Shown: positions 15,605-62,203 of the stretch, in pieces
How the letters are laid out: every line of letters begins with the position of its first letter
Position numbering within the stretch: position 1 is the stretch's first letter
Origin: Geobacter sp. AOG2
Lineage (GTDB): Bacteria; Desulfobacterota; Desulfuromonadia; Geobacterales; Pseudopelobacteraceae
Length of the DNA: 64,000 bases
NCBI RefSeq assembly: GCF_019972295.1
Contig: NZ_BLJA01000001.1
Location: 1,272,049-1,336,048, forward strand
Reading direction: 5' to 3'
Made by a program: the position numbers and the translations under genes
Notes under the pieces: model-generated
What the model saw: the letters and a program-made list of their open reading frames with translations, nothing else
Database searches by the model: none
What the model was told of the DNA's origin: nothing

Positions 15605-15640
15605 AGGTGATAAATATATAACTCATTGAATTTATTGGCA

Positions 15641-15680
15641 CGCCCGGAGAGATTCGAACTCCCGACAACCTGGTTCGAAG
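15641..15680. repeat. Left attachment repeat (attL), tRNA-Arg 3' half
   Basis: These 40 bases are identical to 38737-38776 inside the intact tRNA-Arg gene. The match covers the tRNA from the anticodon loop through the T arm to the acceptor stem and continues outward with one mismatch to 15634. After 15680 the sequence diverges and no 5' half of a tRNA is present. This is the displaced 3' end of the tRNA created by integration. Confidence 0.93.
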
Positions 15681-15863: not shown

Positions 15864-17216
15864 ATGCCAGATATTCTTGATGATATGACAATTCGAAATA
15901 TGAAAGCAACTGGAAACGAATATACCAAAAGGGAGCGAGGCGGTTTTGGAGTCCGGGTGCATCCGTCGGGCCGCAAGGTTTTCTTCTATCTTTACCGTGT
16001 TGATGGTGTCCGCCGGTTTCTGAATTTGGGAGATTATAAGGACAAACAACATCCTAACGGCATCACACTGGAGGAAGCCAGAAGGGCATTTAATATTGAG
16101 AAAGGTAAGGTTACTGCTTTAAAAGCTGGGCGATCCGATGGTGTTGATCCCGCAAAGGTTAAGCAGGAAGCGGCAGCAAAAAGGGTCACGAATGAGGAAG
16201 AGCGTTGCAAAGCATTTACCGTAGAGAACCTCGTAATTGAATATATTGAGAAACATGCCAAAAAATTTAAGCGCTCTTGGGCAGAGGATGAACGTATCCT
16301 CAATAAAGAAGTAATCCCTTTGTGGGGTAAGCGCAAGGCGATAGATATTGTGAAGCGTGATGTCGTTTTATTGCTTGAAAAGATAATCGAACGTGGCTCT
16401 CCTGGCATGAGTAACAATACATTCCAAGTCATTCGCAAGATGCTGAATTTTGCCGTTGAGCGTGACATTTTACCTTATTCGCCGGCAACCGGTGTCAAGG
16501 CGTTGGCTCCAAAAGTTGCGCGAGAAAGGGCGCTTTCTGCTGACGAAATAAAAAAACTATGGTGGACCCTAGATAATGCTGCCATTAGTGATGAGATTAA
16601 GGCCGCGCTCAGATTAATGCTTGTGACGGCACAGCGCCCCGGAGAGGTTATAGGAGTTCATACCAACGAAATTGATGGCGATTGGTGGACTATTCCTAGC
16701 GAGAGGTCCAAAAACGGGAAAGCCCATCGAGTGTTTCTGACGCCTTCTGCAAAGGGACTCATTACGCGATCCATCGATAGGGTTAAGGCTGTTCGAGAAA
16801 TCTCGCCAAAAGTCAAATATGAAGGTCATATTTTCCCATGCCCGCATAGGGAAAAAATTCAGTCTATTGATGTCCATGCCGTAGCGATTGCTGTACACAG
16901 GAACCTCGCTTGGCCATTGTTGGACAAGAAGGGTAATCCACTATTCGGGAAAGATGGAGAGCCTGCAACCGAGAACCGCTTGGGCGTTGACCATTTCACC
17001 CCTCATGATCTTAGAAGAACTGCGGCTACCTTTATGGCTCAAGCTGGTGAAATGGACGAGGTAATTGATGCTGTTTTGAATCACGCCAAGCAAGGTGTAA
17101 TCAAGGTTTATAACCTTTACCGTTATGATAAAGAAAAGCAAATGGCCCTTCTAGCATGGGAAATCAAACTATTAAGTATAATTAATTCCAATAATTATGA
17201 ATGCAATCCAAAGTAA
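15864..17216 (+). CDS. int: Tyrosine recombinase (integrase) of the tRNA-Arg element
   Basis: A 450-residue P4-like integrase that would catalyse integration and excision at the tRNA-Arg site. The N terminus has the arm-binding DUF4102-type domain (ERGGFGVRVHPSGRKVFFY). The catalytic set is present: R258 (TAQRPGE), H381 and R384 (HDLRR), and Y416 (KVYNLY). It lies 184 bases inside the left repeat and is transcribed toward the interior. Its 3' end overlaps the convergent IS630-derived gene by 22 bases. The intact tRNA is at the far end of the element, not beside the integrase. Confidence 0.93.
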   Translation: MPDILDDMTIRNMKATGNEYTKRERGGFGVRVHPSGRKVFFYLYRVDGVRRFLNLGDYKDKQHPNGITLEEARRAFNIEKGKVTALKAGRSDGVDPAKVKQEAAAKRVTNEEERCKAFTVENLVIEYIEKHAKKFKRSWAEDERILNKEVIPLWGKRKAIDIVKRDVVLLLEKIIERGSPGMSNNTFQVIRKMLNFAVERDILPYSPATGVKALAPKVARERALSADEIKKLWWTLDNAAISDEIKAALRLMLVTAQRPGEVIGVHTNEIDGDWWTIPSERSKNGKAHRVFLTPSAKGLITRSIDRVKAVREISPKVKYEGHIFPCPHREKIQSIDVHAVAIAVHRNLAWPLLDKKGNPLFGKDGEPATENRLGVDHFTPHDLRRTAATFMAQAGEMDEVIDAVLNHAKQGVIKVYNLYRYDKEKQMALLAWEIKLLSIINSNNYECNPK

Positions 17217-22425: not shown

Positions 22426-22436
22426 GCCCGGTAAAG

Positions 22437-23093
22437 ATGAAAGGCAATTATCCCGTTATGATCCGACTATTTTTCCTTGTTTCGGCTGGTGCTGTATTGA
22501 TACAGATATTGACTGGCTGTGCGACCTACCACCCTGATATATATGGAGCCTGTTACAACAAGTCGTTGCCGGTGCTGCTCGATGCCACCGACCTGAAAGC
22601 GCTGTTCCAAGATATCGCCGCCGAACTGTGCGTGGATACCTGCGCCGAGTGCGCGGCACGGACCCCTGACGGCAAAGCAGCCATACCGGCGAATGCACCT
22701 AGCGATGAGGCGAATCGCCTGACCGTGCTTGTCACCGACTTCGCCGACCTCCAAACCTTCATACCGAACCAGCCCGGCCTCTTAATGGGGGAATTGATGC
22801 GGGCCAGCCTCAACAAGACCTGTTGCTACAAGATCATCCAGGCCGAATTCGCCAAATACTTCAAGCTGTCGGAAAGCGGGCTGGTGGTGCTGACGCGCAA
22901 CGTGAACGAGATCAAAAAAGACGAGTATTTCCAGTCCGAGGCGATAGTGGGAACCTACAACTATCTGAGCAACAACAAGGTGGTCATTTTTGTCAGGAGA
23001 ATCAATATCACAACGGGGAAGATATCCCGGATGGTGACCCGTGAGGTCAATTATTCCTGCCTTGGGAGGTCGTTGAAGTATTCGGTCAGGTAA
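22437..23093 (+). CDS. Second FlgO-like lipoprotein
   Basis: A 218-residue lipoprotein from ATG 22437; a TTG at 22422 that overlaps the previous stop is an alternative start. The lipobox is LTGC (C28). After a cysteine-rich part (ELCVDTCAECAARTP) it repeats the FlgO-like order: RLTVLVTDFADLQTFIPNQP, GLLMGELMRASLN, then LVVLTRNVNEIKKD and IVGTYNYLSNNKVVIFVRRI. It is a divergent paralogue of the preceding gene and closes the operon before a strong terminator. Confidence 0.72.
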   Translation: MKGNYPVMIRLFFLVSAGAVLIQILTGCATYHPDIYGACYNKSLPVLLDATDLKALFQDIAAELCVDTCAECAARTPDGKAAIPANAPSDEANRLTVLVTDFADLQTFIPNQPGLLMGELMRASLNKTCCYKIIQAEFAKYFKLSESGLVVLTRNVNEIKKDEYFQSEAIVGTYNYLSNNKVVIFVRRINITTGKISRMVTREVNYSCLGRSLKYSVR

Positions 23094-23472: not shown

Positions 23473-24621
23473 ATGACGACTGCTGAACTTTTGGCGGCAG
23501 TGGCACGAGAATGCCCCAACGGCGTGTCATTCGATCCAATGGCAATGCGGCTGTTGCGGCAGAAAGTTCCGTTTGAGGATTGGCAGATTGAAAATCTGAA
23601 AGCTGAGATGTTCCAACTGAGGAATGGGTTGTGGTTTTCCCGCGAGATGGTTTCAGGTGATGAGCCCCTGTTGGCGTTCCATGGGCAGGCGATGGAATGG
23701 CTAAAGGAATACAGTTGCTTTTCGGTCGAACAGCTATTTAAAAATTTTTGCGGTGTTTTCCGCCATATTGTCACGCCTGAGGATTGCGCAGCATTTCTTA
23801 GGCATTTGGGTTTCGCGGTTGCTGTGTGGAAAAAGGGAGGTTATTTCTGTTTCAAGCCCCCATCTAGTCTTGACGATAGTTTGTTGGCAATCTCAGAAGC
23901 GATCGCCGGATGGATTGAAGAGGCGGACGGCACATTGACCTTTCATGAAATCGAACAGGCGATGCCTCACCTAAGCGCCGAGGCATTAGAGAGCATTCGC
24001 GTGCACTTCCTGCCGGAAGTCCATGAGACGGAAGTCGGTGGGATGCCCTGCTGGTGCAGTACAGAGGGGATCCCTCTACCGGAGGATTTTTCGGAAATAC
24101 TGACAACCGCCGTCGATACGTTGGTTGAGTTGAATGAAAAAGTGTCCGCTGCAAAACTTGAGTTTGCCCTAAATTTGTTCTACCGCATCCATTTACGCGA
24201 GGAATACGCCTTGAAGGATAACGACACCTTCATGCGTGTCTGCGCGAAACACTACCAAGGCAGGTACGATGTCTTTCCGAAAGGGCGACGGCTGCGGTTG
24301 GAGCGGGCGGACAAACAAGACGAATATCAGACAGTGAAGATGTCTCCGCACACTAAAGTTCACGAATTGGAAAACGGGATTATCGGCTTAGAGGGACGTC
24401 CGTTATCACCATCGACTTGGCGATTGTTCAAAAGTGTCGGCAGCAGTCCGCGTGTCGCGGAGTGGGTGAGACGTGTGGAAAATGGAGAAAGTGTGGAGAA
24501 AATTGCAAACGAAAATGGTCTCACGGTTTCGACTGTGAGGCAATATATTAAGAATCACGATCGCTATTTTCTAATTTGTGAAAAGAACAGCATCGTGCCG
24601 AAGGGCACCGCGAATGTATAG
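23473..24621 (+). CDS. First gene of the BREX-like operon: unknown HTH-containing protein
   Basis: A 382-residue protein. The start at 23473 is preferred because GGAGGG lies at 23463-23468; ATG 23461 is possible. I do not recognise the family. Secondary-structure feel is of repeated winged-helix units (for example FSVEQLFKNFCGVF and GTLTFHEIEQAMPHLSAEAL). A clear C-terminal helix-turn-helix reads GESVEKIANENGLTVSTVRQ followed by YIKNH. Its end overlaps brxP by 8 bases, so the two are made together. It may recognise DNA sites for the system or regulate it. It is not a WYL-type BrxR regulator. Confidence 0.7.
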   Translation: MTTAELLAAVARECPNGVSFDPMAMRLLRQKVPFEDWQIENLKAEMFQLRNGLWFSREMVSGDEPLLAFHGQAMEWLKEYSCFSVEQLFKNFCGVFRHIVTPEDCAAFLRHLGFAVAVWKKGGYFCFKPPSSLDDSLLAISEAIAGWIEEADGTLTFHEIEQAMPHLSAEALESIRVHFLPEVHETEVGGMPCWCSTEGIPLPEDFSEILTTAVDTLVELNEKVSAAKLEFALNLFYRIHLREEYALKDNDTFMRVCAKHYQGRYDVFPKGRRLRLERADKQDEYQTVKMSPHTKVHELENGIIGLEGRPLSPSTWRLFKSVGSSPRVAEWVRRVENGESVEKIANENGLTVSTVRQYIKNHDRYFLICEKNSIVPKGTANV

Positions 24622-26965
24622 TTACGAGTGGGACAGGCGTACAAGCGGGTACCGCCTGACGACGCAGACGGGAAAGTTCGTGGCGAGCGAAATCCGTCCG
24701 GTCTTCGCGGAGGAACTGGCGATCACGGGGTTTGAAGCACAGTTGGTGTTTGATTCATCGGAGCGGCGTCCGCTCCTCTGGGCGAGGCAGAACGTGTATC
24801 TGTATCGCGGCGAAGAAATCGCGAAAGTCAATAAGACAGGCTACGGCAAACCGCTGGACATCGAATGGAAGGGTACGTTGCACGGGGACAATGGCTCGCA
24901 CGAAGGCGCTAAGACGCGAAGAAAAGTGAAGCTGGTTCCGGTAGATGTCGAGGCAATGGTGGCGAAAAACCATGACATCATGACCGCGCTGGTAGTGGAC
25001 ACGCTTAAGCGCATCAAAGAGATGTACGACGCCTACATGAAAAAATGCGATGCGGTCTATATTGGCTTCAGCGGAGGCAAGGACTCGGTGGTTCTGCTCG
25101 ACCTCTGCCATAAAGTTCTCCCGTTGGACGTACCGGTTGTTTTCAGTGATACGGATATGGAACTGCCGGATACCTACCGCGTCTGGGAAAAAATCCAAAG
25201 GCGCTATGAAGGCCGCCCGTTTTTGAAGGTTTCCGCCAAGACCCCTGCATTGGAAAACTGGCGACTTTTCGGACCGCCGTCGCAAGCGTTGCGTTGGTGC
25301 TGTTCCGTCCACAAGAGCACTCCCGCAATATTAGCGCTCAAGGAAAGACTCGGGAGAAGGTCAATCAAAACGCTGGCATTTGTCGGGGTACGTGGTGAGG
25401 AGAGCCAAAGGCGTTCGGAATACGACGATATTGGAGATGGCTTGAAAAGCCAATCACAGGTGAATGCCATGCCGATTTTGGCGTGGTCCGCGCATGAACT
25501 GTGGCTTTACATTTTTGAGCATGATCTGGTTTTGAACGAAGCATACCGAAAGGGGTTGCCCCGTGTCGGATGCCTAATGTGCCCGATGTCAACCGACCGA
25601 CAGAATGATCTAATCCGGATGAATTTCCCCAAAGAGACCGAGCAGTTTGCTGATGCAGTGCGCTATACAATTGACCGCGAGTTTTCTTCCGAGGAAGACG
25701 CAGATGCGTTTGTTTATGAAGGTGGCTGGTATGCGCGGAAAAGCGGCGTTTCTTTAAAAAAAGTCATTACAGAACCTGGCATAGAACGCAAAAGTGACCG
25801 TGTGATTTGTGAGTTCCCAATTGAAACAGAACTAGCCTTAACGGAATGGCTCAAGGCTATTGGAAAAATTGAGGGTGCGGAGTTATCATTCCGCAAAGAC
25901 GAACAGAGGGGGTTGTTAGAATGTGTCTGGACAAACGGTAAAGCCGACAAGTCCGTCTCCAAGTGGTTGGCCTACGCCGTTCACAAGGCTATTGCCTGCA
26001 CTGGGTGCAACGCATGCGAGGCGGAATGTCCTACCGGTGCGTTGCGGCTGGGCAAAGACAACTGTAGCGACAAGGTGAAGGTTATAATTGACGAAGCAAC
26101 GTGCGTCCATTGCATGAGGTGCTATTCTCCTAACGATGGGTGTTGGCGATATTACTCAAAACGATACGCAGGAGCAAATACGATGAACATCAGCGGTATC
26201 AATAAATACATGACTTTTGGACTGAGACCGGAATGGATTGAAGTTCTGGCGAACGAGGGCGCGAATTTCCGTCAGACAACTGCGCTGGGTAACCGGATGG
26301 TTCCAGCAGCCGTGACGTGGTTCCGTGAGGCGGGGTTGATTGGAGATTCAACGGCTATAACCACAACGCTGCTTTTGGAGGTTGGTAAGAAACGCGGTTT
26401 CAACGATTTGCTGTTTTGGCAGTTGTTGTGGTTCCGTCTGGCAAATGTTTCCCCGCTTGTGAAATGGTATGTCTGCAATACGGATTTTGATACCGGATAC
26501 CCAATTAAGCAGATTGATGAAAGCCTCGCGCAATCCGTTGGATCGGCATCGGTGAGGAAGGGCGCGTTACAGTCGCTTTGCCAACTGGTTAAGTCTTCTC
26601 CGCTTGGCGAAGGTGGCGAGGCGTTAATTGAAGCCGAAATGAAGGGCAGAACCGTTGAAAAACTCATGCGCCGTTCGCGTTCGGTGGATCCGCTGGTTGT
26701 TCTCTATGGGCTTTATGTGATGGCGGAGAAATCTGGGCGCAGTGCGTTCACGGTGCGGCAAATGATGGCGGCGGAGTTCGATGAGGAAGTCGTGTCGCCG
26801 CTAACGACGTTCGGCATCCAGCCGGATGAGTTCAAAAAACAGTGCATGGGGCTGGCGGCGGTGCATCCTGACTTCATCACATGCAGCTTCACGCTAGGGT
26901 TGGACGAGGTGCAGTTGTTCCCTGAAACGAAGAAACGGGACGATGTGGTCGAATTGATTTTGTGA
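24614..26965 (+). CDS. brxP: BrxP-like fusion: PAPS-reductase/ATP-sulfurylase-type PP-loop, ferredoxin, DUF4007
   Basis: A 783-residue three-part protein. Residues about 140-350 are a PP-loop nucleotide-binding domain like PAPS reductase and DndC, with SGGKDS at 153-158, a CC pair at 229-230 and CxxC at 320-323. Residues 455-515 are ferredoxin-like: C462, C465, C468, C472 in a standard 4Fe-4S spacing, and C497, C500, C503, C510 in a looser one. The remainder is a DUF4007-like domain (RQTTALGNRMVPAAVTWFRE). PAPS-reductase proteins replace the methylase in type 4 BREX, and DndC relatives use activated ATP to put sulfur on DNA. The start is ATG 24614, overlapping the previous stop. Confidence 0.87.
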   Translation: MYSYEWDRRTSGYRLTTQTGKFVASEIRPVFAEELAITGFEAQLVFDSSERRPLLWARQNVYLYRGEEIAKVNKTGYGKPLDIEWKGTLHGDNGSHEGAKTRRKVKLVPVDVEAMVAKNHDIMTALVVDTLKRIKEMYDAYMKKCDAVYIGFSGGKDSVVLLDLCHKVLPLDVPVVFSDTDMELPDTYRVWEKIQRRYEGRPFLKVSAKTPALENWRLFGPPSQALRWCCSVHKSTPAILALKERLGRRSIKTLAFVGVRGEESQRRSEYDDIGDGLKSQSQVNAMPILAWSAHELWLYIFEHDLVLNEAYRKGLPRVGCLMCPMSTDRQNDLIRMNFPKETEQFADAVRYTIDREFSSEEDADAFVYEGGWYARKSGVSLKKVITEPGIERKSDRVICEFPIETELALTEWLKAIGKIEGAELSFRKDEQRGLLECVWTNGKADKSVSKWLAYAVHKAIACTGCNACEAECPTGALRLGKDNCSDKVKVIIDEATCVHCMRCYSPNDGCWRYYSKRYAGANTMNISGINKYMTFGLRPEWIEVLANEGANFRQTTALGNRMVPAAVTWFREAGLIGDSTAITTTLLLEVGKKRGFNDLLFWQLLWFRLANVSPLVKWYVCNTDFDTGYPIKQIDESLAQSVGSASVRKGALQSLCQLVKSSPLGEGGEALIEAEMKGRTVEKLMRRSRSVDPLVVLYGLYVMAEKSGRSAFTVRQMMAAEFDEEVVSPLTTFGIQPDEFKKQCMGLAAVHPDFITCSFTLGLDEVQLFPETKKRDDVVELIL

Positions 26966-26994
26966 AAGTAGCCAACAACAGAGGATTTGAAAAA

Positions 26995-29900
26995 ATGGCA
27001 TTCTACAAAGACTATTTTGGGATCAGACCTGATTACGCGCCGTGCATGACGCTGGCAGACATCAATAAGACGCCGGATACCTGGCTGGGATTCTATCCGC
27101 ACGATTCGTTCGTGGAAATTTTGCGGGAGCTGCTCAGGAGTTTAGAGGGCGGGAACAAGACGTTGTGGATCACAGGCGCCTATGGCACGGGAAAGAGCCA
27201 CGCGTCGCTGGTTCTGCAAAAACTGTTCATGGACGACGAAACGCGCGTCCAAAAATGGCTCGAACTGCGCAACGCGCAGATCCCAGAACCCGTGCGCAAG
27301 GGGTTGCTGGCTCGGCGCGGGGAAAAAGCGCTCGTCGTCTATGATGTGAACGCTGACGGCGTGGACGCGAAGAATCAGTTCCTAATGCGCTTGCAGCGCG
27401 GTATCACTAAAGCGCTGGAGGCGGGCGGGCACACGATTCCACTGAAAGGCAAGCTGGATGAAGTAATTGAGCGCATCCGGCAGGACGAGCCGCATTTCTT
27501 CGCAGAACGTGATGCGATTCAGGCTCGGCTCTCGCACCTGAACGCGGGTATCAAAACTGCGGATGCGCTGGAGAAAAAGTTGCGGGATGCAAATCAGGAG
27601 GCGGGCCTGGTCAGCGACGCAATGCGGGTATTGGTGGCACGGCACATCTATCTGGATTTGAGCGCGGAGGATTTTCTGGCGTGGGTGGACGCTTCCTTGA
27701 AAGTGAATGGACTTTCCAAGTTAGTGTATATCTGGGATGAGTTCTCGTCGTTCATGGAACGCAACCGTTCGGAATTAAAGACACTGGAGCAGCTAGCGGA
27801 GGCCGCACAGCAGGGGCGGTTCTATTTTGTGCCTGTAACGCACACGGATATTTCGTCGTATGTGGCGGCAGGATCCGAGAGTGCAAAGAAGGCGAACAAC
27901 CGGTTCACGTTCAAGCGGCTTGACCTGCCGAATGAAACCGCGCTGAAACTGGCGGCAGACGCCTTCGTTGTTAAGCCGGAGAAGGCAACGGAGTGGACGC
28001 AAGAACGGGACGTGCTGTGGCACAGCGTGAACGGTGTGGCTGAAAACTACATGGCTTTTAACAAGGCAGGTATTGATGCTGCGGATTTCAAGAATATCCT
28101 GCCTCTGCACCCGATGGCGGCGTTCCTACTTAAACACCTGTCGGTGGCGGTAGGAGCAAACCAGCGGAGCATGTTCGAGTTCCTGAACGGCGAGGAATTC
28201 AAAGCGTTCATTGAAAAAGGCGGTTTGGATATTGCCGGCCACCAGTTTCTGACGGCAGATCATCTCTGGCGGTATTTTGTGGAACGAGATGACCTGGGAA
28301 CGGGGCAAGCCGTGCAGGAAGCGCGAGGGGAATACGCTCGACGCGAACAGGATTTGCAGCCGGACGAGCGGCGCGTGTTCAAGGCGGTATTGCTGTTTGG
28401 CTTGATCGAACAGATTCAGGGAACGGGACATCCGCTGTTGAGCGTGGCGGTGGAAAATATCCAGCGCAGTTTCGAGGGTGACGGCGCTTTGCAGGGCATG
28501 GATGCGATCCTACGCAATCTGGAGCAGAAGCATTGTTTCGCGATTATGAACGAGCGTTGCGAACGTTTCCGTGACCGCTCGGACACGAAAGAGATTGAGG
28601 AGAAAAAAACGACGTTGGATGGCAAGTTTGGAGATCTTGTGCTGAAAGACACCGAGGCGGAGCTGGTTAAACAGTTGAAAGGTGTCAACTACGGCGGGCG
28701 TTTTGATGTGCGCGCGGCAGGCATCAACGGTCTTTCAGCATCAAGCATCACAAAACGCGAGTTTTTTGGTGACAACGGGAACCGAGTGCTTGTGCAGTTC
28801 ATTCTGGCGCGGGACGAACAGGAGCAATTGCGTATCCCCGAGAAGGTAAAAGACTTGGCAAAACAGTTCAAAGACCACCGGATGCTGTTTGTGATGCTGC
28901 CAGGTGTCAGCTTCTGCCACGACAACGTGAAGGCATGGGATGAGTTCACGGAAAACAGTGCCCGTCTCGCATTGGCAAGCGATAGCGCGAGCAAGAAAGT
29001 GTTCGAGACGCAGGTCAGTAGCGCGAAAGCAGCGTGGCATTCCAAAGTCACGAGTGCTGCCAAACTCATAGTGTACAAGCCTAATATAAATGGGGAGCCA
29101 TTCGTTGAGGAAGTGACGTGGGGACAACTGAAAAAGGATTGGCTTACTGGCTATGCGAAACAGTCGTTCGAGGCATATACGGACGATCTGTGCAGCTTCA
29201 ACATCAGTGCGTTCGGCCAGTTGACCCACTTGCAGAGTTGGGCGCTGGCGGGCATGGAGTTCGACAAGTTTGCGAAGCCCGGCCAGTGGAAGACCGTGGT
29301 GACGGCGTGGCAGAAAAGCGGTGTCACCGGCGAGGAAGCATGGTTCGATGCGAATCCGAACCATGCGCTGACACAGTTACGGGATTTTTGCAAAAAACGC
29401 CAAGAAAGCACGGTTGGCGCGGGTAATCCCTGCTCTATACGCAAACTCTACATCGATCTACAGCGTCCACCTTTTGGACTGCTTGGGGTTCCGCATTCGG
29501 CCTTCGTGCTGGGCTTCGTGCTGAAAACATGGTTGACTGGACAGCGCAAACTGCAATGGACGGATAGCGTGACAAGCAAAGCTCTCGACGCAGTGGTGCT
29601 GGCGGAAATCATCGAGGCGGTGGTGAAGGACGACGGCAGCAACTCCATCAGGAACGAGAAACTAGTCTGTCGCCTGTCGAAAGAGGAAAAGGCGTTCATC
29701 GATCAGAGCAGTATGATTTTCGGGAGCAGTCCGCTTGCGGATGGAACGGTGGAGGCGGCGTTGAATGCGGTCAGGGCGCGGCTTGAGCAGATTTCGCAAC
29801 GTGTTCCGCTGTGGGTGCTACCGGAACATATTAGCGCACAAGCTGAGCCGAGCGCGGAGGCAATGGGCAAAGTCATTGATGCGCTGTGCGCGGCAAACAG

Positions 29901-31149
29901 CATCAGTTCCAAAGGAGACACCGAGACTCGCGGCAATTATGTGAAGGAAATCGGCAAGATTCTTCTGGCAACGCCGGGGCTTGCTGAGGCAATGGCCAAG
30001 TATATGGTACCGGTGGTGTTTGAGGAGGCATTCCAACTTTATGTCGATAGTGCCAAGCCGGAGTTAAAAGCGGTGGCGGAGCGTATGGGGGGCACGTCGC
30101 ATATCTATTGCAAGGCGGTCAAAGACCGGTTTGCGGCGACGAGCAGCTGGCTGTGGAAACGCGTTGACGCCGAGTCCGTACTGGAAGAAATTTTCCGGCA
30201 GACGCTATGCACCGAGCATATCCGTGGGCTGGCTGGCTCGTCAGGGTACATGAGCTTTGAGGACGCGCTGAACTGCTTGCGCAATGCGGTGTTGAGCGAG
30301 AACAAGGTGCCGACGGAGTTCTGGGCGAAAAAACATCCGGCGTTGCAGCGCTTCTTTGAATTGCTCAGCAGGCCGTCGTTGTCCGGCGAGGACGTGAAGG
30401 TCTTTGAAGAGATTCTGGAACTGCAAGGCAGGATTATCCGCGAGGCGTTTTTCGACGTGGCGCAAGCGCGACAGCTGGATGCGATGCGGGAAATATTCAG
30501 AGAGAACTGGCCAATGTCGATCACGGAAGGGCGCGAGCTTTACAATGTCTTTCCACCGGATACAGCAAGAGTCGATGAGCAGAGTTTCAAGGCGCAGGGG
30601 CGAGTCACTATTGAGGAATATAGTCGGACGCTGGTTTCCAAACAGGTGGCGGTGCTATGGCGTGAACGCACAGGCACGGAATCGCCTGACGAATGGAGCC
30701 GCAAACACGCGCTGCCAGCAGAGTGTGTTTTGGCGATAGACGATGCCAAGGGCTTCGTCGATGCGGTTACAAGGCCGGGAGGGGTGTCGGCGGAACGCTT
30801 ACAGTCCGTGCATGACGAACTTGAAAAAGAGGGGGCATTTGTAGACGTGGCCACGGCAGGTGAAAAATTCCTCAAACGGGTGCTGCCCCCACGTTATCAG
30901 AAGATCGTGTTCAGTGCCGGTGATCTGAGTGATTGGTTATGCAGAAAACTGGGTGACGCACCGGGCCGATGGCTGACGGATGGAGAGCTTCGCGATGCGG
31001 TTGAGGCATTCGTCAAGCAGAGGTATGAGAGTCATGCGCGGAAGCAGGCTACAGAAAAGGTGAATATGCTTCCTGATGCCGAGGCGAAGATACTGCTCCT
31101 GAAGATGATTGATCAAATTCCCGATGTAGGGCTTTCGGTGCTGGAGTGA
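26995..31149 (+). CDS. brxC: BrxC/PglY-type large ATPase
   Basis: A 1384-residue P-loop ATPase. The start is ATG 26995, preceded by AGAGGA; the frame is open to a GTG at 26962. It opens with the typical phrase DTWLGFYPHDSFVEILRELL. The Walker A motif is GAYGTGKS at 61-68 and the Walker B is KLVYIWDEFSSF. The rest is a long helical region rich in charged residues. BrxC/PglY is one of the two proteins shared by all BREX types (with PglZ) and is thought to act as an assembly or DNA-handling motor. It lies 29 bases after brxP and 4 bases before pglZ. Confidence 0.9.
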   Translation: MAFYKDYFGIRPDYAPCMTLADINKTPDTWLGFYPHDSFVEILRELLRSLEGGNKTLWITGAYGTGKSHASLVLQKLFMDDETRVQKWLELRNAQIPEPVRKGLLARRGEKALVVYDVNADGVDAKNQFLMRLQRGITKALEAGGHTIPLKGKLDEVIERIRQDEPHFFAERDAIQARLSHLNAGIKTADALEKKLRDANQEAGLVSDAMRVLVARHIYLDLSAEDFLAWVDASLKVNGLSKLVYIWDEFSSFMERNRSELKTLEQLAEAAQQGRFYFVPVTHTDISSYVAAGSESAKKANNRFTFKRLDLPNETALKLAADAFVVKPEKATEWTQERDVLWHSVNGVAENYMAFNKAGIDAADFKNILPLHPMAAFLLKHLSVAVGANQRSMFEFLNGEEFKAFIEKGGLDIAGHQFLTADHLWRYFVERDDLGTGQAVQEARGEYARREQDLQPDERRVFKAVLLFGLIEQIQGTGHPLLSVAVENIQRSFEGDGALQGMDAILRNLEQKHCFAIMNERCERFRDRSDTKEIEEKKTTLDGKFGDLVLKDTEAELVKQLKGVNYGGRFDVRAAGINGLSASSITKREFFGDNGNRVLVQFILARDEQEQLRIPEKVKDLAKQFKDHRMLFVMLPGVSFCHDNVKAWDEFTENSARLALASDSASKKVFETQVSSAKAAWHSKVTSAAKLIVYKPNINGEPFVEEVTWGQLKKDWLTGYAKQSFEAYTDDLCSFNISAFGQLTHLQSWALAGMEFDKFAKPGQWKTVVTAWQKSGVTGEEAWFDANPNHALTQLRDFCKKRQESTVGAGNPCSIRKLYIDLQRPPFGLLGVPHSAFVLGFVLKTWLTGQRKLQWTDSVTSKALDAVVLAEIIEAVVKDDGSNSIRNEKLVCRLSKEEKAFIDQSSMIFGSSPLADGTVEAALNAVRARLEQISQRVPLWVLPEHISAQAEPSAEAMGKVIDALCAANSISSKGDTETRGNYVKEIGKILLATPGLAEAMAKYMVPVVFEEAFQLYVDSAKPELKAVAERMGGTSHIYCKAVKDRFAATSSWLWKRVDAESVLEEIFRQTLCTEHIRGLAGSSGYMSFEDALNCLRNAVLSENKVPTEFWAKKHPALQRFFELLSRPSLSGEDVKVFEEILELQGRIIREAFFDVAQARQLDAMREIFRENWPMSITEGRELYNVFPPDTARVDEQSFKAQGRVTIEEYSRTLVSKQVAVLWRERTGTESPDEWSRKHALPAECVLAIDDAKGFVDAVTRPGGVSAERLQSVHDELEKEGAFVDVATAGEKFLKRVLPPRYQKIVFSAGDLSDWLCRKLGDAPGRWLTDGELRDAVEAFVKQRYESHARKQATEKVNMLPDAEAKILLLKMIDQIPDVGLSVLE

Positions 31150-31153
31150 TACC

Positions 31154-33253
31154 ATGACACTGAGCGAGTATTGCGAATACATCATGAATCCCCTCGCGAA
31201 GGCGAAGGCGCGGGTGGTAATCGTGCCTCCGGGAGATTGGACAGCGCTACGCAGGTTCTACCAAGAGCGCGGCGGCATTGAGTTTCGTTTGAGCGATATA
31301 GTGAGGGAAGGCGCGTGGCTCCCAATGCCTGACGAAGTTTTCGGTCGGGTACGCGATGTGATGTCGGCACAGGAGGCAAGCGGTAATGCTGTAGTATTTC
31401 TGGGGCTGCCAGGTTATCTTGCGTTGTTAACGGACGAGAATAAGCGGGCTGCGATTGTCGCTTTACGCGAATGGGTAGACGGTACGTCAGAGCGGGATGC
31501 TGTTTGCTTTTTGCGGAGCGATGACGGCACGGATTTGATACTCAAGAATGTTTTCGCTAATCCACGCTACCGCCAGGGGAAACAATTGATTGAAATTTCT
31601 GGAGATTATGTGCCGAAGTTTGCTGGACGTACGGAGGTGATGCTGGTCGGGGACGATTTAGCATCATTCATCCCGGAAGCATGCGACACATTTCAGAAGT
31701 ATTTGCGATATACCGAAGAACATCCGAGTGACAGCTTTGTCAGGCGGATTGTGGTTGCCTCGGAAGGGCGAGAATTAGCTGGGCTAAGCGCCGAGGTACG
31801 GCAGGTAGTGTGTCTGCGGGATTTCGCTCGCGTGTTTTACGGCGTGGATGATTCGGGATTGTCCGAAGATGCCTTGCGGTGGATGTGCGAGCAGGGCAAA
31901 GAAGGTGTGGAAAAGACGCTTTCGGAAACGCTCAAGAAGCTATTTTTTCCGGAAAATGGAGTCACAAAGTGCGTCTTGCGTGTGTTTGACGAGCACAGAG
32001 GGGCTAAACGCGAGGCAGTACTGTGGTTGGTAAAATACATCGCATACAAGGGGAGTTACCTTGAGTGTGTCGTAAAGCAAGAGGGGGTCCATGTCGGCAA
32101 CTTCCGCTCCGCATACGTAGCGGGTGCCGTGGAATGGCTGGATGAATCATTGGTATATGCTGGCGAACGCAGGAATGCTATACGGGAAGCAGACGTTAGC
32201 AGATCCGACGCGGAAATCCGGCAATTCATCGCGCGTTGTGCGGGTGAATCCACGTCGCGAGTTGCGCCTTGGTTGAATTGCAGAACTGACGCGGAGCTGG
32301 CAGAATTACTGCGGCGTTGCTCAGTAGATAGCATTGTGTCAAACGTCGTAAAAGATGTGTATCCAGAAGCGGCAGCGTATCTGAACACCGATCTCGTTTT
32401 TGGCGACGAGATGTTGGAAGAATATTTCATGGAATACCGAGAACTGAAAATAGCTGGTCGCATGACGCCGGAGTTTTATGAGAAGGCAAAACGGGTGGCC
32501 CCCCCGAGTTCGGTACAATCGCGGGACGCAATGGTGCAACGGTATACCTCGGACAACGGGTGCGCGTTACTGGTGGTGGACGCGATGGGCGTGGAATGGT
32601 TGCCGATGTTGGTAGCACTGGCGTTACAACGGAATATAGGCGTGGATTCGATTGCGGTCAGCGAGGTGCATTTGCCGACATCTACGATATTCAACAACAT
32701 CTATTGGCCAGATGTCACACGACGGTTGCCGGACATTAAGCGCTTCGACAACATTGCGCACAATGGAGCGGAAGCGCACGAGACCCGGCGCACGGAGGAA
32801 AATCTGGCTGCGGCGCTGGATGTGATCGGCAGTGATGTGTTGCCGCGCGTGGCGGAGGGGCTGACGCGATTTGAGCGAGTGCTTGTCACAGCAGACCACG
32901 GAAGTTCACGGTTAGCGGTGTTGGCATGGCAGGCCGAACCGAGGCTGGCGCGGACGCTTACCTGTGAGGCTGGCGCGGAAGTCGCCGATTGGCGCTACCG
33001 AGAGCGGGCGGCGCAAGGTGGATGCCCACCGGAACTGGAAGAAACTATGGATGGCAGGTATTGGGTGATACGTGGGTATGACCGGCTGCCCAAGAGGGGG
33101 GGCGGACAGGGCTTTGAGCTACACGGCGGCGCGTCGCTGGAAGAGCGGCTGGTGCCGGTAGTGATTTTCTCGCAATTGGGGCAGTTCGTGACAAAGGCAA
33201 AGACTGATGGCAAACGGGCGCAGATTGTTGAGAAAGACGATTTCGATTTGTAG
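31154..33253 (+). CDS. pglZ: PglZ-family alkaline-phosphatase-fold protein
   Basis: A 699-residue protein, the defining BREX component. The C-terminal half has the alkaline phosphatase superfamily core: CALLVVDAMGVEWLPML with metal-site D476, and a second metal motif VLVTADHGSSRLAV. The N-terminal half (LAKAKARVVIVPPGDW) is the usual partner-binding region with low sequence conservation. Its ATG is 4 bases after the brxC stop with GGAG at 31143, so the two are coupled. The biochemical role in BREX is not settled in general. Confidence 0.9.
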   Translation: MTLSEYCEYIMNPLAKAKARVVIVPPGDWTALRRFYQERGGIEFRLSDIVREGAWLPMPDEVFGRVRDVMSAQEASGNAVVFLGLPGYLALLTDENKRAAIVALREWVDGTSERDAVCFLRSDDGTDLILKNVFANPRYRQGKQLIEISGDYVPKFAGRTEVMLVGDDLASFIPEACDTFQKYLRYTEEHPSDSFVRRIVVASEGRELAGLSAEVRQVVCLRDFARVFYGVDDSGLSEDALRWMCEQGKEGVEKTLSETLKKLFFPENGVTKCVLRVFDEHRGAKREAVLWLVKYIAYKGSYLECVVKQEGVHVGNFRSAYVAGAVEWLDESLVYAGERRNAIREADVSRSDAEIRQFIARCAGESTSRVAPWLNCRTDAELAELLRRCSVDSIVSNVVKDVYPEAAAYLNTDLVFGDEMLEEYFMEYRELKIAGRMTPEFYEKAKRVAPPSSVQSRDAMVQRYTSDNGCALLVVDAMGVEWLPMLVALALQRNIGVDSIAVSEVHLPTSTIFNNIYWPDVTRRLPDIKRFDNIAHNGAEAHETRRTEENLAAALDVIGSDVLPRVAEGLTRFERVLVTADHGSSRLAVLAWQAEPRLARTLTCEAGAEVADWRYRERAAQGGCPPELEETMDGRYWVIRGYDRLPKRGGGQGFELHGGASLEERLVPVVIFSQLGQFVTKAKTDGKRAQIVEKDDFDL

Positions 33254-33274
33254 TTTCAACGAGGGCAATCAAAC

Positions 33275-34729
33275 ATGGTCAATACTGAAAAACTGCGAGC
33301 GGCATTTCCGGACACAACGGTCTTTAAGGCCCCAAACATCGTGGCGATCTTCAAAGCGGCGTCGATTCCGTCGTTCTTACGGGATTGGATTTTGAAGCGC
33401 AAGGCGGAATCGGACGGGAGAATCCACGATGCTGAGGCTTTACGAAAATACATTTACGAAATTATTCCGCGCCGGGAGAATTTACTGGAATTGAAGGACG
33501 TGGCGCGAAGTGAGGGGCGCACGAAGAAGTTTCTGGCCAAAATTGAAATCCAATTCATTGTGCGGTCCAACGAGTACACATTCGCGATTCCGGAATTGGG
33601 TCTGGGGCATGCGGAAACGCTGATCGAGGACTATGTCTGGAACAGGATCAAAGATGATGTCGTAAAAACTGCTGGCGGCTGGGGACTAGTACAACTTGGG
33701 TACCGGAGCCCGGACGACGAGAATTCGCGTGGATGTTTCACGCTCTTAGAGTACAAGAATTTCTGTCCGTACTCGATAGATCTGGACGCCTATAGAGAGG
33801 CCCGCTGTCAGTTCACAACTGAGGAATGGATCGACGTTGTGTTGGGTGCGATCGACTACAACCCGGAAGGTTACGAAGACTGGGTGCAGAAACATACGGT
33901 ACTGACGCGCCTGTTGCCGTTCATCGAACCGCGTCTGAATTTGATAGAGCTGGCACCCAAGGGGACTGGCAAGTCGTATATGTTCGGGCGGGTAGGGAAA
34001 TACGGCTGGCTGGTCAGTGGGGGGACGCTGACGCGGGCGAAGATGTTCGGAGATATCAATGGGAAGAGCCCCGGCCTGATCGCGTCGAACGACTTTGTGG
34101 CACTGGACGAAATCCAGTCGATCAACTTCCATGACCCGAGCGAAATGCAGGGCGGGCTGAAAGCCTACATGGAAAGTGGGGAGATTACAGTCGGTAAGAA
34201 CCGTATCATAGGCGGGGCCGGTGTCATCCTGCTTGGGAACATCCTGCAAACAGAGATGGACGAAACCAAAGATATGTTCCAGAGGCTACCGGAAGTGTTT
34301 CACGAGTCGGCATTGCTGGACCGATTCCACGGTTTTATCCGTGGGCGTGACATTCCACGCATGAGTGAGAACCTGAAGATCTGCGGTTGGGCGCTGAACA
34401 CGGAGTATTTTTCTGAAATCATGCATTTGCTGCGTCAGCCGGCGGAAACAATGATTTACCGGCATGTCGTCGAAAGACTGGTGGACTATCCTTCTGGGGC
34501 GGACACCCGTGACACTGAAGCGGTTTTACGGCTATGCACAGCCTACCTCAAACTGCTGTTCCCGCACGCTACAGAGCCGGACGGTATTGACAGAGGGGAG
34601 TTCAAGCGATACTGTCTGCGGCCCGCCGTACAGATGCGAACGGTGATTCGACAACAATTGCAGAAGATAGACCCGCTTGAATACGGAGGGAAGAACGTAG
34701 CCGCATATACGTTACGCGAGGTAGATTAA
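33275..34729 (+). CDS. brxL: BrxL-like AAA+ protein without Lon protease domain
   Basis: A 484-residue protein. The N-terminal part (LRAAFPDTTVFKAPNIVAIF) and the AAA+ core (LAPKGTGKSYMFGRVGKYG with GTGKS at 230-234; Walker B NDFVALDEIQSINF) match BrxL. Type 1 BrxL proteins are near 680 residues and carry a C-terminal Lon-like domain; here the protein ends about where that domain would begin, with no Ser-Lys protease motif visible. It is probably a DNA-loading hexameric ATPase. Its stop TAA overlaps the next ATG by one base. Confidence 0.86.
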   Translation: MVNTEKLRAAFPDTTVFKAPNIVAIFKAASIPSFLRDWILKRKAESDGRIHDAEALRKYIYEIIPRRENLLELKDVARSEGRTKKFLAKIEIQFIVRSNEYTFAIPELGLGHAETLIEDYVWNRIKDDVVKTAGGWGLVQLGYRSPDDENSRGCFTLLEYKNFCPYSIDLDAYREARCQFTTEEWIDVVLGAIDYNPEGYEDWVQKHTVLTRLLPFIEPRLNLIELAPKGTGKSYMFGRVGKYGWLVSGGTLTRAKMFGDINGKSPGLIASNDFVALDEIQSINFHDPSEMQGGLKAYMESGEITVGKNRIIGGAGVILLGNILQTEMDETKDMFQRLPEVFHESALLDRFHGFIRGRDIPRMSENLKICGWALNTEYFSEIMHLLRQPAETMIYRHVVERLVDYPSGADTRDTEAVLRLCTAYLKLLFPHATEPDGIDRGEFKRYCLRPAVQMRTVIRQQLQKIDPLEYGGKNVAAYTLREVD

Positions 34730-34935
34730 TGAACAGAGGAAAACAAATCAATTGTGCCTATTGCGCCAAAGAGAAGCTTTCCAAAAATGAGATTGGACTT
34801 AACAAAAAACTCATAAATCAGCAGGTTGAACGGATGATGTGTATGACGTGTATGGCAGCGTACTTCGAGACGACGGAAGAGGAATTGAAAGAGATGATAG
34901 AAGGTTTTAAGCGGCAAGGCTGTGAATTATTTTGA
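34729..34935 (+). CDS. Small two-CxxC metal-binding protein
   Basis: A 68-residue protein with C9-x-x-C12 (CAYC) and C38-x-x-C41 (CMTC), the layout of a zinc ribbon or an iron-sulfur or rubredoxin-like site, followed by an acidic helix (TTEEELKEMIEGFKRQG) and a final cysteine (C66). Its start overlaps the brxL stop by one base, and the desulfurase gene starts 13 bases after it. This places it in the operon as a possible sulfur relay, metal donor or adaptor for the desulfurase. No named family is recognised. Confidence 0.75.
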   Translation: MNRGKQINCAYCAKEKLSKNEIGLNKKLINQQVERMMCMTCMAAYFETTEEELKEMIEGFKRQGCELF

Positions 34936-34948
34936 AAGAGGCGATACT

Positions 34949-36073
34949 TTGATTTATGCCGATAATGCTGCTACGACAAGAATATCTGACAGTGTTTTAG
35001 AGAAAATGCTCCCTTTTTTGCAGGAGCAATATGGCAACGCTTCCAGCCAGTATTCACTCGGAATAAAAGCAAAATGTGCCATTGAACAGGCTCGCCAGCA
35101 GGTTGCCGGGGCTATCGGAGCAGAGCCTTCTGAAATCGTGTTTACTTCAGGTGGTTCTGAGAGCAATAGCTGGGTATTGTCCTCCGTCAACAATGGACAT
35201 GTTATTACATCTTCAATCGAGCATCACTCTGTGCTCGATGCATGCCATTCACTTGAGCGTAAGGGTATAGCTGTGACTTACCTGCCTGTTGATGGCAGGG
35301 GACGCGTTTCGTTAGACGACATAAAGGAAGCCATTCGCTCCGATACTAAACTTGTTTCTATTATGCTCGCAAATAATGAAATCGGGACAATTCAACCAGT
35401 TGCTGAAATCGGGGAATATCTGCGTGAGCGCAATGTTTTGTTTCACACTGATGCAGTTCAAGCTGTCGGACATATCCCCGTCATTGTCAAGGAACTTGGA
35501 GTAGATTTCCTGACTGCATCCAGCCACAAATTCAATGGAGCAAAAGGAACGGGCATTTTCTACAAAAGGAACGGCGCCTCACTGCCTCCTTTGATCTTCG
35601 GAGGAGAGCAAGAGCGCGGGGTTCGTGCCGGAACTGAGAATGTTGCGGGAATTGTGGCAACGGGATATGCCATTGGTGAAAGCGTAAATGATATGACAGC
35701 AATGGCCGATAAACTATCGGTTTTTGTGCATGCAACGATATTCGGGATACGAACTCAAATTCCAGGTATTATTATTAATGGTGATGAAAGTAATAGGTTG
35801 CCAGGAATTGTAAACATAGTCTTTAATGGTGTTACAGGCGAATCGCTTATGCATTTATTGGACTTAAAGGGAATATGTGTATCTACAAGCTCAGCTTGCA
35901 CATCTGGAAAAGGCAAACCTTCACATGTGCTAATGGCATTAGGATTAACTGAACAGCAAGCTAAATCTGCTATTCGCATTTCATATGGAAGGTACAACAA
36001 TATAAATGACGTTGAAACTATTGTAGCCACCATTTGCAATGCCTACAACAAAATTTTAACAGCAAAGTTATAG
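34949..36073 (+). CDS. Cysteine desulfurase (NifS/IscS/DndA type)
   Basis: A 374-residue PLP enzyme that takes sulfur from cysteine to form a protein persulfide. The start is probably TTG 34949, which gives the family-typical opening M-IYADNAATT and has AAGAGG at 34936-34941; a GTG at 34922 would add nine residues. The PLP lysine is K194 (SSHKFNG). The catalytic cysteine is C317 in SSACTSGKGKPSH, on a loop of IscS-like length. It is the last gene of the BREX-like operon. Cysteine desulfurases supply sulfur in Dnd and Ssp DNA phosphorothioation, so its presence next to a PAPS-reductase BREX set is telling. Confidence 0.9.
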   Translation: MIYADNAATTRISDSVLEKMLPFLQEQYGNASSQYSLGIKAKCAIEQARQQVAGAIGAEPSEIVFTSGGSESNSWVLSSVNNGHVITSSIEHHSVLDACHSLERKGIAVTYLPVDGRGRVSLDDIKEAIRSDTKLVSIMLANNEIGTIQPVAEIGEYLRERNVLFHTDAVQAVGHIPVIVKELGVDFLTASSHKFNGAKGTGIFYKRNGASLPPLIFGGEQERGVRAGTENVAGIVATGYAIGESVNDMTAMADKLSVFVHATIFGIRTQIPGIIINGDESNRLPGIVNIVFNGVTGESLMHLLDLKGICVSTSSACTSGKGKPSHVLMALGLTEQQAKSAIRISYGRYNNINDVETIVATICNAYNKILTAKL

Positions 36074-36610: not shown

Positions 36611-37213
36611 ATGAAAGTACCATTTAGGCAACAAACTTCTGATTATGACTGCGTGCCGACCACGATAATAAATGCGTTGAGCTATCTATTTGACAGGAGA
36701 GAAATTCCACCATTCATTGTCCGACAAATTTATAAGGAGTGTCTGGACATCAAAGCCTACCGTGGGACATCAAGTCGCGCGATTCAGGATCTAGGTTTTT
36801 GGCTTAGCCACTATAAGGAAAAAAATTTCAATAATTTTGTTATTGAGTCGGAATTCATCACCGGCAACCAAGTGCATTTCCAGCAACAGAGCAAGATCGT
36901 TCGGTGCATTAATTCAAATGGCGCGGCATTGTTGTGTGTACAGCTGAACCGGGATACCTGGCATTACATACTTGGCCTTCGATTTGAAGAAGGGTGGCTA
37001 TATTGCTATGATCCTTTGCCCCGCTCCAAGAGGTTTATCGGTACTGATGCCGTACAATTTATCTCGGCAACCGGACAAGCCCCAAACTTAAGAATTCATT
37101 TAGACTGGCTAGATAAGAAAATCAAAAAAATAATAAATGCTGACGAGTACAAGTATGTTTTGGGTTGCACCAATGAGCGAGAATGCCTCCTGCTAAGGAA
37201 AATTAGCGTATAG
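36611..37213 (+). CDS. C39-like papain-fold protein
   Basis: A 200-residue protein without a signal peptide. The opening QQTSDYDCVPTTIINALSYL matches the catalytic cysteine region of peptidase family C39 (a Q before D-C). A histidine follows in WHYILGLRFEEGWLYCYDP, with an aspartate at the expected spacing, so a Q-C-H-D catalytic set may be complete. C39 domains usually cut leader peptides in export ATPases; free-standing ones are poorly understood. It lies between the BREX-like operon and the element backbone, so a role in defence or self-protection is possible but unproven. GGAGC precedes the ATG. Confidence 0.65.
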   Translation: MKVPFRQQTSDYDCVPTTIINALSYLFDRREIPPFIVRQIYKECLDIKAYRGTSSRAIQDLGFWLSHYKEKNFNNFVIESEFITGNQVHFQQQSKIVRCINSNGAALLCVQLNRDTWHYILGLRFEEGWLYCYDPLPRSKRFIGTDAVQFISATGQAPNLRIHLDWLDKKIKKIINADEYKYVLGCTNERECLLLRKISV

Positions 37214-38676: not shown

Positions 38677-38731
38677 TCCGATATCAACATGAAAATGACT
38701 TGGTTCTATTAGTGTAAGTTCCTGTAAATAT

Positions 38732-38808
38732 TGGCGCGCCCGGAGAGATTCGAACTCCCGACAACCTGGTTCGAAGCCAGGGACTCTATCCGGCTGAGCT
38801 ACGGGCGC
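38732..38808 (-). tRNA. tRNA-Arg (anticodon UCG), also attR
   Basis: Read on the minus strand, the acceptor stem is GCGCCCG paired with CGGGCGC, the anticodon stem is CCTGG/CCAGG with loop CTTCGAA, and the T arm holds GTTCGAATC. The anticodon TCG reads CGA codons. The CCA end is encoded (complement TGG at 38732-38734). The 3' half is identical to the left repeat of the element, so the element restored an intact tRNA when it inserted. The 5' end is only 9 bases after the stop of the lipoprotein gene to its right, and both lie on the minus strand. Confidence 0.96.
38737..38776. repeat. Right attachment repeat (attR)
   Basis: Forty bases inside the tRNA-Arg gene, from the anticodon loop to the acceptor stem, are identical to 15641-15680. 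Confidence 0.93.
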
Positions 38809-60732: not shown

Positions 60733-60807
<75 letters not shown>

Positions 60808-60823
60808 TTTTAACGACATAGTT

Positions 60824-62125: not shown

Positions 62126-62203
62126 TGTTTATCTCTCCATCCGTTACCCTCCCTTCAGTGTGCCAAAAGTTCACAGGGAGGATAACGGCATCACATAACA
62201 TTA

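What the first reader, a model, noticed from the sequence alone, without database searches (positions are those of the whole stretch)
23473..36073. Type 4 BREX gene set joined in one operon to a cysteine desulfurase and a CxxC protein
Seen: seven same-strand genes with overlaps or gaps of at most 29 bases: HTH protein, PAPS-reductase fusion, BrxC, PglZ, BrxL-like, CxxC/CxxC protein, NifS-like desulfurase. There is no DNA methylase. Known: type 4 BREX is defined by brxP, brxC, pglZ and brxL, and Dnd/Ssp systems use a desulfurase (DndA, SspA) plus a PAPS-reductase-like DndC or SspD to place sulfur in the DNA backbone. Inference: the host mark of this BREX variant is a sulfur modification of DNA, with its own dedicated sulfur donor, which would merge two defence strategies.
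Basis: partly seen in the sequence, partly recalled or inferred. Interest (0 to 1): 0.92.

Follow-up and report, generated by a model that had tools for sequence, protein, structure and literature searches.

The report
Sulfur-marking BREX defence operon with desulfurase
This is a mobile anti-virus gene cluster of an already described kind (type 4 BREX) that most likely marks the cell's own DNA with sulfur and carries its own sulfur-supplying enzyme, plus a tiny cysteine-rich protein that may hand the sulfur over.

Summary
The seven-gene operon is real; its four BREX genes match their type 4 PADLOC profiles over nearly their whole length. No sulfur chemistry could be tested here.

Added here, from 56 related loci and 22 viral-contig loci: (1) the 68-residue CxxC protein is more constant than the desulfurase (42 of 46 assessable loci, window included; desulfurase in 22 of those 42); (2) it has a fifth invariant cysteine in a C-x-L-F tail (42 of 42, plus 25 of 25 viral copies, many near-identical); (3) in 11 viral contigs (about two lineages) this domain is fused to the BrxP sulfurtransferase region; (4) linked desulfurases group apart from 30 sampled housekeeping enzymes and track CxxC better than BrxP; (5) a gene predicted as a winged-helix array precedes brxP in nearly all loci. 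A second type 4 lineage lacks CxxC and desulfurase. The operon is cargo of a 23.1-kb tRNA-Arg integrative element. My added mechanism, a sulfur relay to BrxP, is inference.

The parts
15633..15680 (.). left attachment-like repeat (48 nt, 98% identical to 38729-38776)
   Evidence: the repeat finder
15864..17216 (+). tyrosine integrase of the element (Phage_integrase and Arm-DNA-bind_3 over their cut-offs)
   Evidence: Pfam; ORF
23473..24621 (+). HTH protein of 382 aa, predicted winged-helix array; a homologue lies upstream of brxP in nearly every relative
24614..26965 (+). brxP: PAPS-reductase-like domain, 4Fe-4S ferredoxin-type region, C-terminal part called DUF4007 in PMC12839542 (Pfam's DUF4007 model did not match); 12 cysteines invariant in 52 of 52
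26995..31149 (+). brxC (P-loop ATPase, distantly SspC-like)
   Evidence: PADLOC 2691.1 bits
31154..33253 (+). pglZ, type 4
   Evidence: PADLOC 1414.7 bits; NCBIfam NF033445 over cut-off
33275..34729 (+). brxL (AAA+ Lon-like)
   Evidence: Pfam BrxL_ATPase and BrxL_N; PADLOC 758.6 bits
34729..34935 (+). CxxC protein of 68 aa: C9, C12, C38, C41 (zinc-type pairs) and C65 in a C-x-L-F tail; candidate sulfur relay
34922..36073 (+). class V aminotransferase-type cysteine desulfurase
38729..38776 (.). right attachment-like repeat, overlapping tRNA-Arg(tcg) 38732-38808 on the minus strand

Best explanation
The operon is a type 4 BREX system on a 23.1-kb tRNA-Arg integrative element. Steps: (a) the linked desulfurase, or a housekeeping one where it is missing, takes sulfur from cysteine as a persulfide; (b) BrxP (PAPS-reductase fold plus Fe-S region) puts the sulfur into the DNA backbone, with BrxC and its own C-terminal part as helpers; (c) PglZ and BrxL act against unmarked invading DNA; (d) the HTH protein binds DNA, as regulator or subunit. 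Added proposal: the 68-residue CxxC protein is a zinc-stabilised adaptor whose tail cysteine (C65) passes the persulfide from a desulfurase to BrxP. Gene set, conservation, linkage and fusion are shown; (a) to (c) follow from published family knowledge; (d) and the relay are inference. The confidence given is for the system as type 4 BREX with sulfur marking; the relay alone stands at about 0.4.
For: Near full-length profile matches for the four BREX genes. Desulfurase keeps the PLP lysine motif and the loop cysteine in 22 of 22. The 22 linked desulfurases form one side of a 100/100 branch against 30 enzymes of the window's order. CxxC: C9, C12, C38, C41 and C65 invariant in 42 of 42; tail C-x-L-F in 25 of 25 viral copies. 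Each of the 26 loci whose desulfurase scores over 500 bits on my profile also has CxxC (window plus 21, 4); two gut-phage scaffolds with weak matches (98 and 81 bits; L146, L147) have none. Desulfurase distances follow CxxC distances after allowing for BrxP (partial Mantel 0.41, 0 of 5000 permutations as high, 21 loci). CxxC fused to the C-terminus of the BrxP region in 11 viral contigs. Strong CxxC matches in 3 of 395 phylum genomes (own included), the same 3 that match this PglZ family.
Against: No chemistry was tested; no phosphorothioate data for this host. The CxxC model has only weak structural matches, mostly sigma-4/HTH-like (Foldseek best E 0.93; VIA best Z 3.7 at rmsd 7.4), and the NAR paper calls the protein similar to HTH-type regulators, so DNA binding is possible. 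In the viral fusions CxxC stands where BrxP has its C-terminal DNA-binding part, which would also suit a DNA-contacting role. CxxC is absent from 4 of 46 assessable loci and from a second type 4 lineage (L087, L088, L091). In L125 CxxC and desulfurase are separated by brxL. Neighbouring genes that move together would also give the Mantel result.
Confidence: 0.9

Rival explanations
1. The CxxC protein is a small zinc-containing DNA-binding or regulatory protein, not a sulfur carrier; the tail cysteine is structural or a redox sensor.
For: HTH-like weak structural matches; described as similar to HTH-type regulators in PMC12839542; in viral fusions it sits where BrxP has its C-terminal part.
Against: Net charge near zero (mean +0.86 with and +1.05 without a linked desulfurase); the last cysteine is invariant and followed by only 3 or 4 residues; fusion to a sulfurtransferase region and co-variation with the desulfurase.
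Confidence: 0.4
2. The desulfurase is only a hitch-hiking or redundant copy; housekeeping IscS/NifS supplies BrxP and the linked gene adds nothing.
For: 20 of 42 CxxC-bearing loci lack it, and about 10 gains or losses (at least 8 forced by supported branches) are needed on the BrxP tree; the host has a NifU-linked desulfurase elsewhere; L012 keeps only what looks like the start of the gene (by eye).
Against: Catalytic residues are kept in 22 of 22; one group spread over several phyla, not a local duplicate.
Confidence: 0.15
3. The element does not mark DNA; BrxP uses sulfur for another purpose (tRNA thiolation or Fe-S assembly) and BREX acts without a self mark.
For: No modification data for this host; PAPS-reductase folds also occur in tRNA thiolation and sulfur assimilation (recalled).
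Against: Published assignment of brxPCZL to phosphorothioate synthesis (PMC11931770 passages; PMC12839542 passages); BrxP's C-terminal part is described there as DNA-binding.
Confidence: 0.05

Closest known systems
Type 4 BREX (brxP-brxC-pglZ-brxL) with cysteine desulfurase, PMC12839542
   Same: All four defining genes, a linked desulfurase, a small zinc-finger protein, a long BrxP with a C-terminal part
   Different: The passages read do not mention the fifth cysteine, the CxxC-BrxP fusion, CxxC without desulfurase, or the upstream winged-helix gene (its figures and supplements were not seen)
Ssp system (SspA-SspB-SspC-SspD, SspE)
   Same: Desulfurase, PAPS-reductase-like SspD, SspC-like ATPase, DUF4007 = SspB as stated in PMC12839542
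   Different: Has PglZ and BrxL; BrxC and BrxP match BREX profiles far better than SspC/SspD
Dnd system (DndA-E)
   Same: Desulfurase resembling DndA and a PAPS-reductase-like sulfurtransferase
   Different: No DndC match in the host genome at E 0.001; desulfurase scores 336.4 bits against the DndA equivalog cut-off of 480
SufU / SufE / TusE-DsrC type sulfur relays (recalled)
   Same: Small partner of a desulfurase; zinc (SufU) or C-terminal cysteine arm (DsrC/TusE)
   Different: No sequence relation shown; analogy only

Membership tests
Type 4 BREX | brxP (PAPS-reductase type) | tested here: met
   PADLOC BrxP 1004.5 bits, residues 13-794 of the 795-aa ORF
Type 4 BREX | brxC, pglZ and brxL in the same operon | tested here: met
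   PADLOC 2691.1, 1414.7 and 758.6 bits; coordinates
Type 4 BREX | no DNA methylase | tested here: met
   None among the operon proteins and the 11 other element proteins scanned; short ORFs not scanned
Type 4 BREX | phosphorothioate in host DNA and phage protection | not testable with these tools
   needs LC-MS and plaque assays
Type 4 BREX | linked desulfurase (proposed sixth component) | tested here: met
   34922-36073; 22 of 42 CxxC-bearing loci, window included
Dnd | DndC present in the genome | tested here: not met
   no match at E 0.001
Dnd | desulfurase over the DndA equivalog cut-off | tested here: not met
   336.4 bits vs 480
Ssp | SspC/SspD as best profile | tested here: not met
   SspC 75.7 vs BrxC 2691.1; SspD 42.1 vs BrxP 1004.5
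Ssp | SspE or SspFGH effector | not tested
   no dedicated search made
Sulfur carrier proteins (SufU/TusE type), for CxxC | sequence or fold relation | tested here: inconclusive
   No PDB sequence match better than E 0.045 and none of the 10 listed is a sulfur carrier; Foldseek/VIA matches weak

The most novel reading that the evidence does not exclude
The CxxC protein is a dedicated zinc-bound persulfide carrier for DNA backbone sulfuration: a core part of one lineage of type 4 BREX that lets either a linked or a housekeeping desulfurase feed BrxP. Phages have taken the same pair as a one-piece BrxP-CxxC enzyme (two lineages 59% identical) that may put sulfur into phage DNA without any BREX genes.
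Probability: 0.33. Interest if true: 0.75.

Novelty: new member of a known kind. Interest (0 to 1): 0.45.

Why it matters
The merger of BREX with DNA sulfur marking is already in print, so the operon is a clean new example. What it adds is a direct test: whether phosphorothioation by this lineage needs a sulfur relay protein. A 68-residue protein with one invariant tail cysteine can be mutated and assayed. If the relay is real, it would explain why about half of the surveyed loci do without a linked desulfurase. The BrxP-CxxC fusions on phage contigs would point to virus-encoded backbone sulfuration, perhaps as counter-defence.

Tried and rejected
Rejected: chance neighbour (linked in 22 of 42 loci); local copy of a housekeeping desulfurase (own next best 40% identical, best in a relative 46%; tree); CxxC as a partner only of the desulfurase (20 loci keep it without one; in four Planctomycetaceae loci, L025, L028, L029, L031, brxL-CxxC is followed by the HTH gene and brxP); CxxC as a partner only of BrxL (fused to the BrxP region with no brxL match in the stretches held).

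Led nowhere: Pfam on 8 long or odd HTH-protein relatives (no family over its cut-off); Pfam on CxxC (DUF2197 at 18.9 bits, below its cut-off of 22.2, for the window protein; DUF2197 at E up to 0.1 in 12 of 35 members); PDB sequence search with CxxC; CxxC in the plasmid collection (window copy) and phage collection (L131 free copy): no match; PDB fold matches of the HTH protein are winged-helix proteins at low TM; the BrxP profile rings in 380 of 395 phylum genomes, presumably through ordinary PAPS reductases and ferredoxins, so only the long hits were followed. Yuan et al. 2024, the experimental paper on type 4 BREX phosphorothioation, is not held: seen only as cited by others. Literature searches for phage-borne phosphorothioation or a sulfur carrier in it (listings only, plus passages of PMC11437467, which notes phage PAPS reductases) showed no report of a CxxC carrier or fusion; this covers only that library.

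Limits: the 54 genome loci come from two short peptide patterns, so the sample is not even. Of 31 housekeeping loci offered to the tree 30 passed (L002 did not), all from one order, so the tree does not place the BREX group among all desulfurases. 11 of 56 loci could not be judged for CxxC (contig end, or no brxL in the stretch held). Viral contigs include near-copies (four are 100% identical to the query). Of the L131 and L138 contigs 23.3 of 53.3 kb and 21.6 of 35.4 kb were seen. The Mantel tests used 21 of the 22 loci with desulfurase (L057 lacks brxL). L144 and L145 (phage-collection scaffolds with BREX genes) are in no count: my stretches end inside brxL. The presence/absence label is somewhat clustered on the BrxP tree (9 of 500 shuffles as low).

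Full report
OBSERVATION. The seven genes are present on one strand with the spacing stated. Two starts can be refined: BrxP begins at ATG 24614, BrxC most likely at ATG 26995. PADLOC gives BrxP 1004.5, BrxC 2691.1, PglZ 1414.7 and BrxL 758.6 bits, each over nearly the whole protein; the desulfurase scores 445.6 as DndA and 442.2 as SspA, so these profiles do not tell the two apart. NCBIfam puts PglZ over the BREX_PglZ_4 cut-off and the desulfurase under the DndA equivalog cut-off. No methylase was found in the operon or in the element proteins scanned. The host genome has no DndC match and has a separate desulfurase about 0.5 kb downstream of a NifU_N match.

CONTEXT. A 48-nt repeat (98%) at 15633-15680 and 38729-38776 overlaps the 3' part of a tRNA-Arg gene (38732-38808, minus strand), and a tyrosine integrase lies just inside the left copy (15864-17216). 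So the operon is cargo of a 23.1-kb integrative element. G+C is 0.52 in the operon and 0.43 in the rest of the element; within the operon the CxxC gene (0.396) and the desulfurase (0.432) are lower than the other five genes (0.50-0.55). Among 57 genomes searched (the window's own and 56 relatives, 5 of the same genus), only the window's own has this desulfurase; all other matches are 46% identical or less.

PRIOR ART. PMC12839542 (NAR, January 2026; [quoted passage not shown] PMC11931770 (passages) lists brxPCZL as one of three phosphorothioate-synthesis families and cites Yuan et al. 2024, which is not held. PMC12707154 (passages) also treats type IV BREX as a phosphorothioation system.

SURVEY. 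A scan of the GTDB genome collection with a BrxP alignment returned 54 loci; with L012 and L013 this gives 56, in Thermodesulfobacteriota, Bacillota, Planctomycetota, Chlorobiaceae, Spirochaetota, Lentisphaerota and others. HTH gene: found by profile in 53 of 56; tblastn with a divergent relative finds it directly upstream of brxP in L051 and L059 as well, and a 70-residue piece in L067. In L026 it lies about 2 kb upstream; in the viral-contig locus L125 none was found. CxxC gene: 41 of 56; 11 of the 15 misses cannot be judged (contig end, or no brxL in the stretch held); the 4 real misses are L016 (a 17-residue start remnant), L018, L021 and L041 (brxL itself truncated). With the window: 42 of 46 assessable. 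Desulfurase: 21 of 41, with the window 22 of 42, always on the same strand and within -94 to +65 nt of the CxxC gene (longest ORFs). L012, a close relative (PglZ 77% identical), keeps CxxC but, by eye, only the first codons of the desulfurase, followed by unrelated sequence. L057 has CxxC and desulfurase but no PglZ or BrxL match. A second type 4 lineage (L087, L088 and the Methanosphaera plasmid L091) has BrxP-BrxC-PglZ-BrxL with no CxxC or desulfurase match; no HTH gene in L087 and L091, while the L088 contig ends about 150 nt upstream of brxP; L089 runs off its contig inside brxC. So CxxC and desulfurase mark one lineage, not all of type 4.

DESULFURASE. All 22 linked enzymes keep the PLP lysine motif and the loop cysteine. 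They form one side of a 100/100 branch against 30 enzymes from the window's order (a narrow outgroup). On the BrxP tree presence/absence needs about 10 changes, at least 8 forced by supported branches. Pairwise distances: BrxP-BrxL r 0.95, desulfurase-BrxP 0.52, desulfurase-CxxC 0.62 (21 loci). L013 is an example: desulfurase 69% identical to the window's, BrxP only 34%. Given BrxP, desulfurase-CxxC keeps 0.41 (0 of 5000 permutations as high), desulfurase-BrxL is -0.25, and desulfurase-BrxP given CxxC is 0.135 (375 of 5000). The desulfurase thus moves among type 4 operons, apparently in step with CxxC; co-transfer of neighbours would also give this.

CxxC PROTEIN. In 42 of 42 proteins C9, C12, C38, C41, K27, C65, L67 and F68 (window numbering) are invariant. 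The last cysteine is followed by 3 or 4 residues whether or not a desulfurase is linked, and net charge is near zero. The AlphaFold model (pLDDT 86.9) has three helices and no confident PDB relative: Foldseek best E 0.93; VIA best Z 3.7 at rmsd 7.4 to sigma region 4, and Z 3.1 at rmsd 3.6 to a zinc domain of HPV E6. Over 395 phylum genomes (own included) the profile has strong matches in 3, the same 3 that match this PglZ family; the next two have E about 0.006.

FUSION. A viral-contig scan with BrxP gave 22 loci. Five are type 4 BREX loci with CxxC (L123-L126, L139; 4 with desulfurase); in L125 the order is PglZ-CxxC-BrxL-desulfurase. In 11 contigs (plus the edge piece L155) a BrxP-like protein lacking the C-terminal part ends in a complete CxxC domain (L131: BrxP region 1-515, 536.8 bits; CxxC 515-578, 81.1 bits). 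In 6 of the 11 (L128-L132, L141; in L141 in pieces) a second BrxP-like gene is followed by a free CxxC gene; L135 and L140 show the free pair without a fused copy in view. All 25 viral CxxC copies end in C-x-L-F with at most one further residue. L131 and L138, the longest stretches, carry endolysin, spanin-like, exonuclease, annealing-protein, helicase and tail genes (L131 also a methyltransferase-like and a reverse transcriptase gene), so these are phages; no BrxC, PglZ, BrxL or desulfurase match was found in the stretches held. The two fusion lineages are about 59% identical. The fusion ties CxxC to the sulfurtransferase. It does not by itself choose between a sulfur relay and a DNA-contacting role.

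HTH PROTEIN. AlphaFold (pLDDT 88.3) shows repeated winged-helix-like units; the best PDB matches are UFL1/DDRGK1, SelB and ESCRT-II (best E 1.2e-4; TM by query 0.19-0.28 in the first nine). Unbroken relatives run from about 290 to 1356 aa, and the 8 scanned have no Pfam family over its cut-off. The passages of PMC12839542 that I read do not mention it; figures and supplements were not seen. DNA binding as regulator or subunit is inferred.

MECHANISM AND VERDICT. Most likely: desulfurase -> (CxxC relay, inferred) -> BrxP -> backbone sulfur on host DNA, with BrxC as ATPase partner and PglZ/BrxL as the arm against unmarked DNA. BrxP has 12 invariant cysteines in 52 of 52: a CC pair, a CxxC pair (228, 229, 319, 322, numbered from codon 24617) and eight in the ferredoxin region; the CC...CxxC set resembles the Fe-S site of APS reductases (recalled). 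The C-terminal part of BrxP is called DUF4007 after the paper; the split in my one search is simply the second half of BrxP. Filing as type 4 BREX is firm (0.9, for the system, not the relay); the relay stands at about 0.4. Novelty: new member of a known kind, with an untested addition.

Noticed in passing
L128-L134, L136-L138, L141, L155 (e.g. L131:9998-11734, L138:9998-11722): Viral contigs encode a BrxP-like PAPS-reductase/ferredoxin protein fused to the CxxC domain; two lineages about 59% identical. Possible virus-encoded DNA sulfuration.
   Followed up: partly
window 23473-24621 and relatives; L058:5912-9982: Near-constant winged-helix-type gene upstream of brxP, about 290 to 1356 aa; the L058 protein has a similar N-terminal stretch three times (by eye).
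   Followed up: partly
window 15633-38776: The operon lies on a tRNA-Arg integrative element with AlpA-like, weakly Rep-like and IS-type transposase ORFs.
   Followed up: partly
window 60733-63855: tRNA-Gly next to another integrase-looking ORF (60824-62125, by eye) and a rolling-circle Rep (Rep_trans and Rol_Rep_N): edge of a second element.
   Followed up: no
window 36611-37213 and 37621-38226: 200-aa protein without Pfam match (looks like a C39-type peptidase by eye) and a RadC-like JAB protein beside the operon.
   Followed up: no
window 21754-23093: Two FlgO-domain genes just upstream of the operon, inside the element.
   Followed up: no
L087, L088, L089, L091: Second type 4 BREX lineage without CxxC and desulfurase; L087-L089 carry a further gene like the BrxP C-terminal part after brxP, and L091 has a DUF262 gene downstream of brxL.
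   Followed up: partly
L090 (G014): Decayed type 4 BREX: HTH-gene match followed by BrxP in pieces, no BrxC, PglZ or BrxL match in the stretch seen.
   Followed up: no
L146, L147: Human-gut phage scaffolds with a BrxP-like protein and a weak desulfurase-profile match; L146 also has a BrxC-like ATPase; no CxxC (perhaps Ssp-like).
   Followed up: no
L041:19344-20564: Integrase-looking ORF (by eye), minus strand, directly after a truncated brxL.
   Followed up: no
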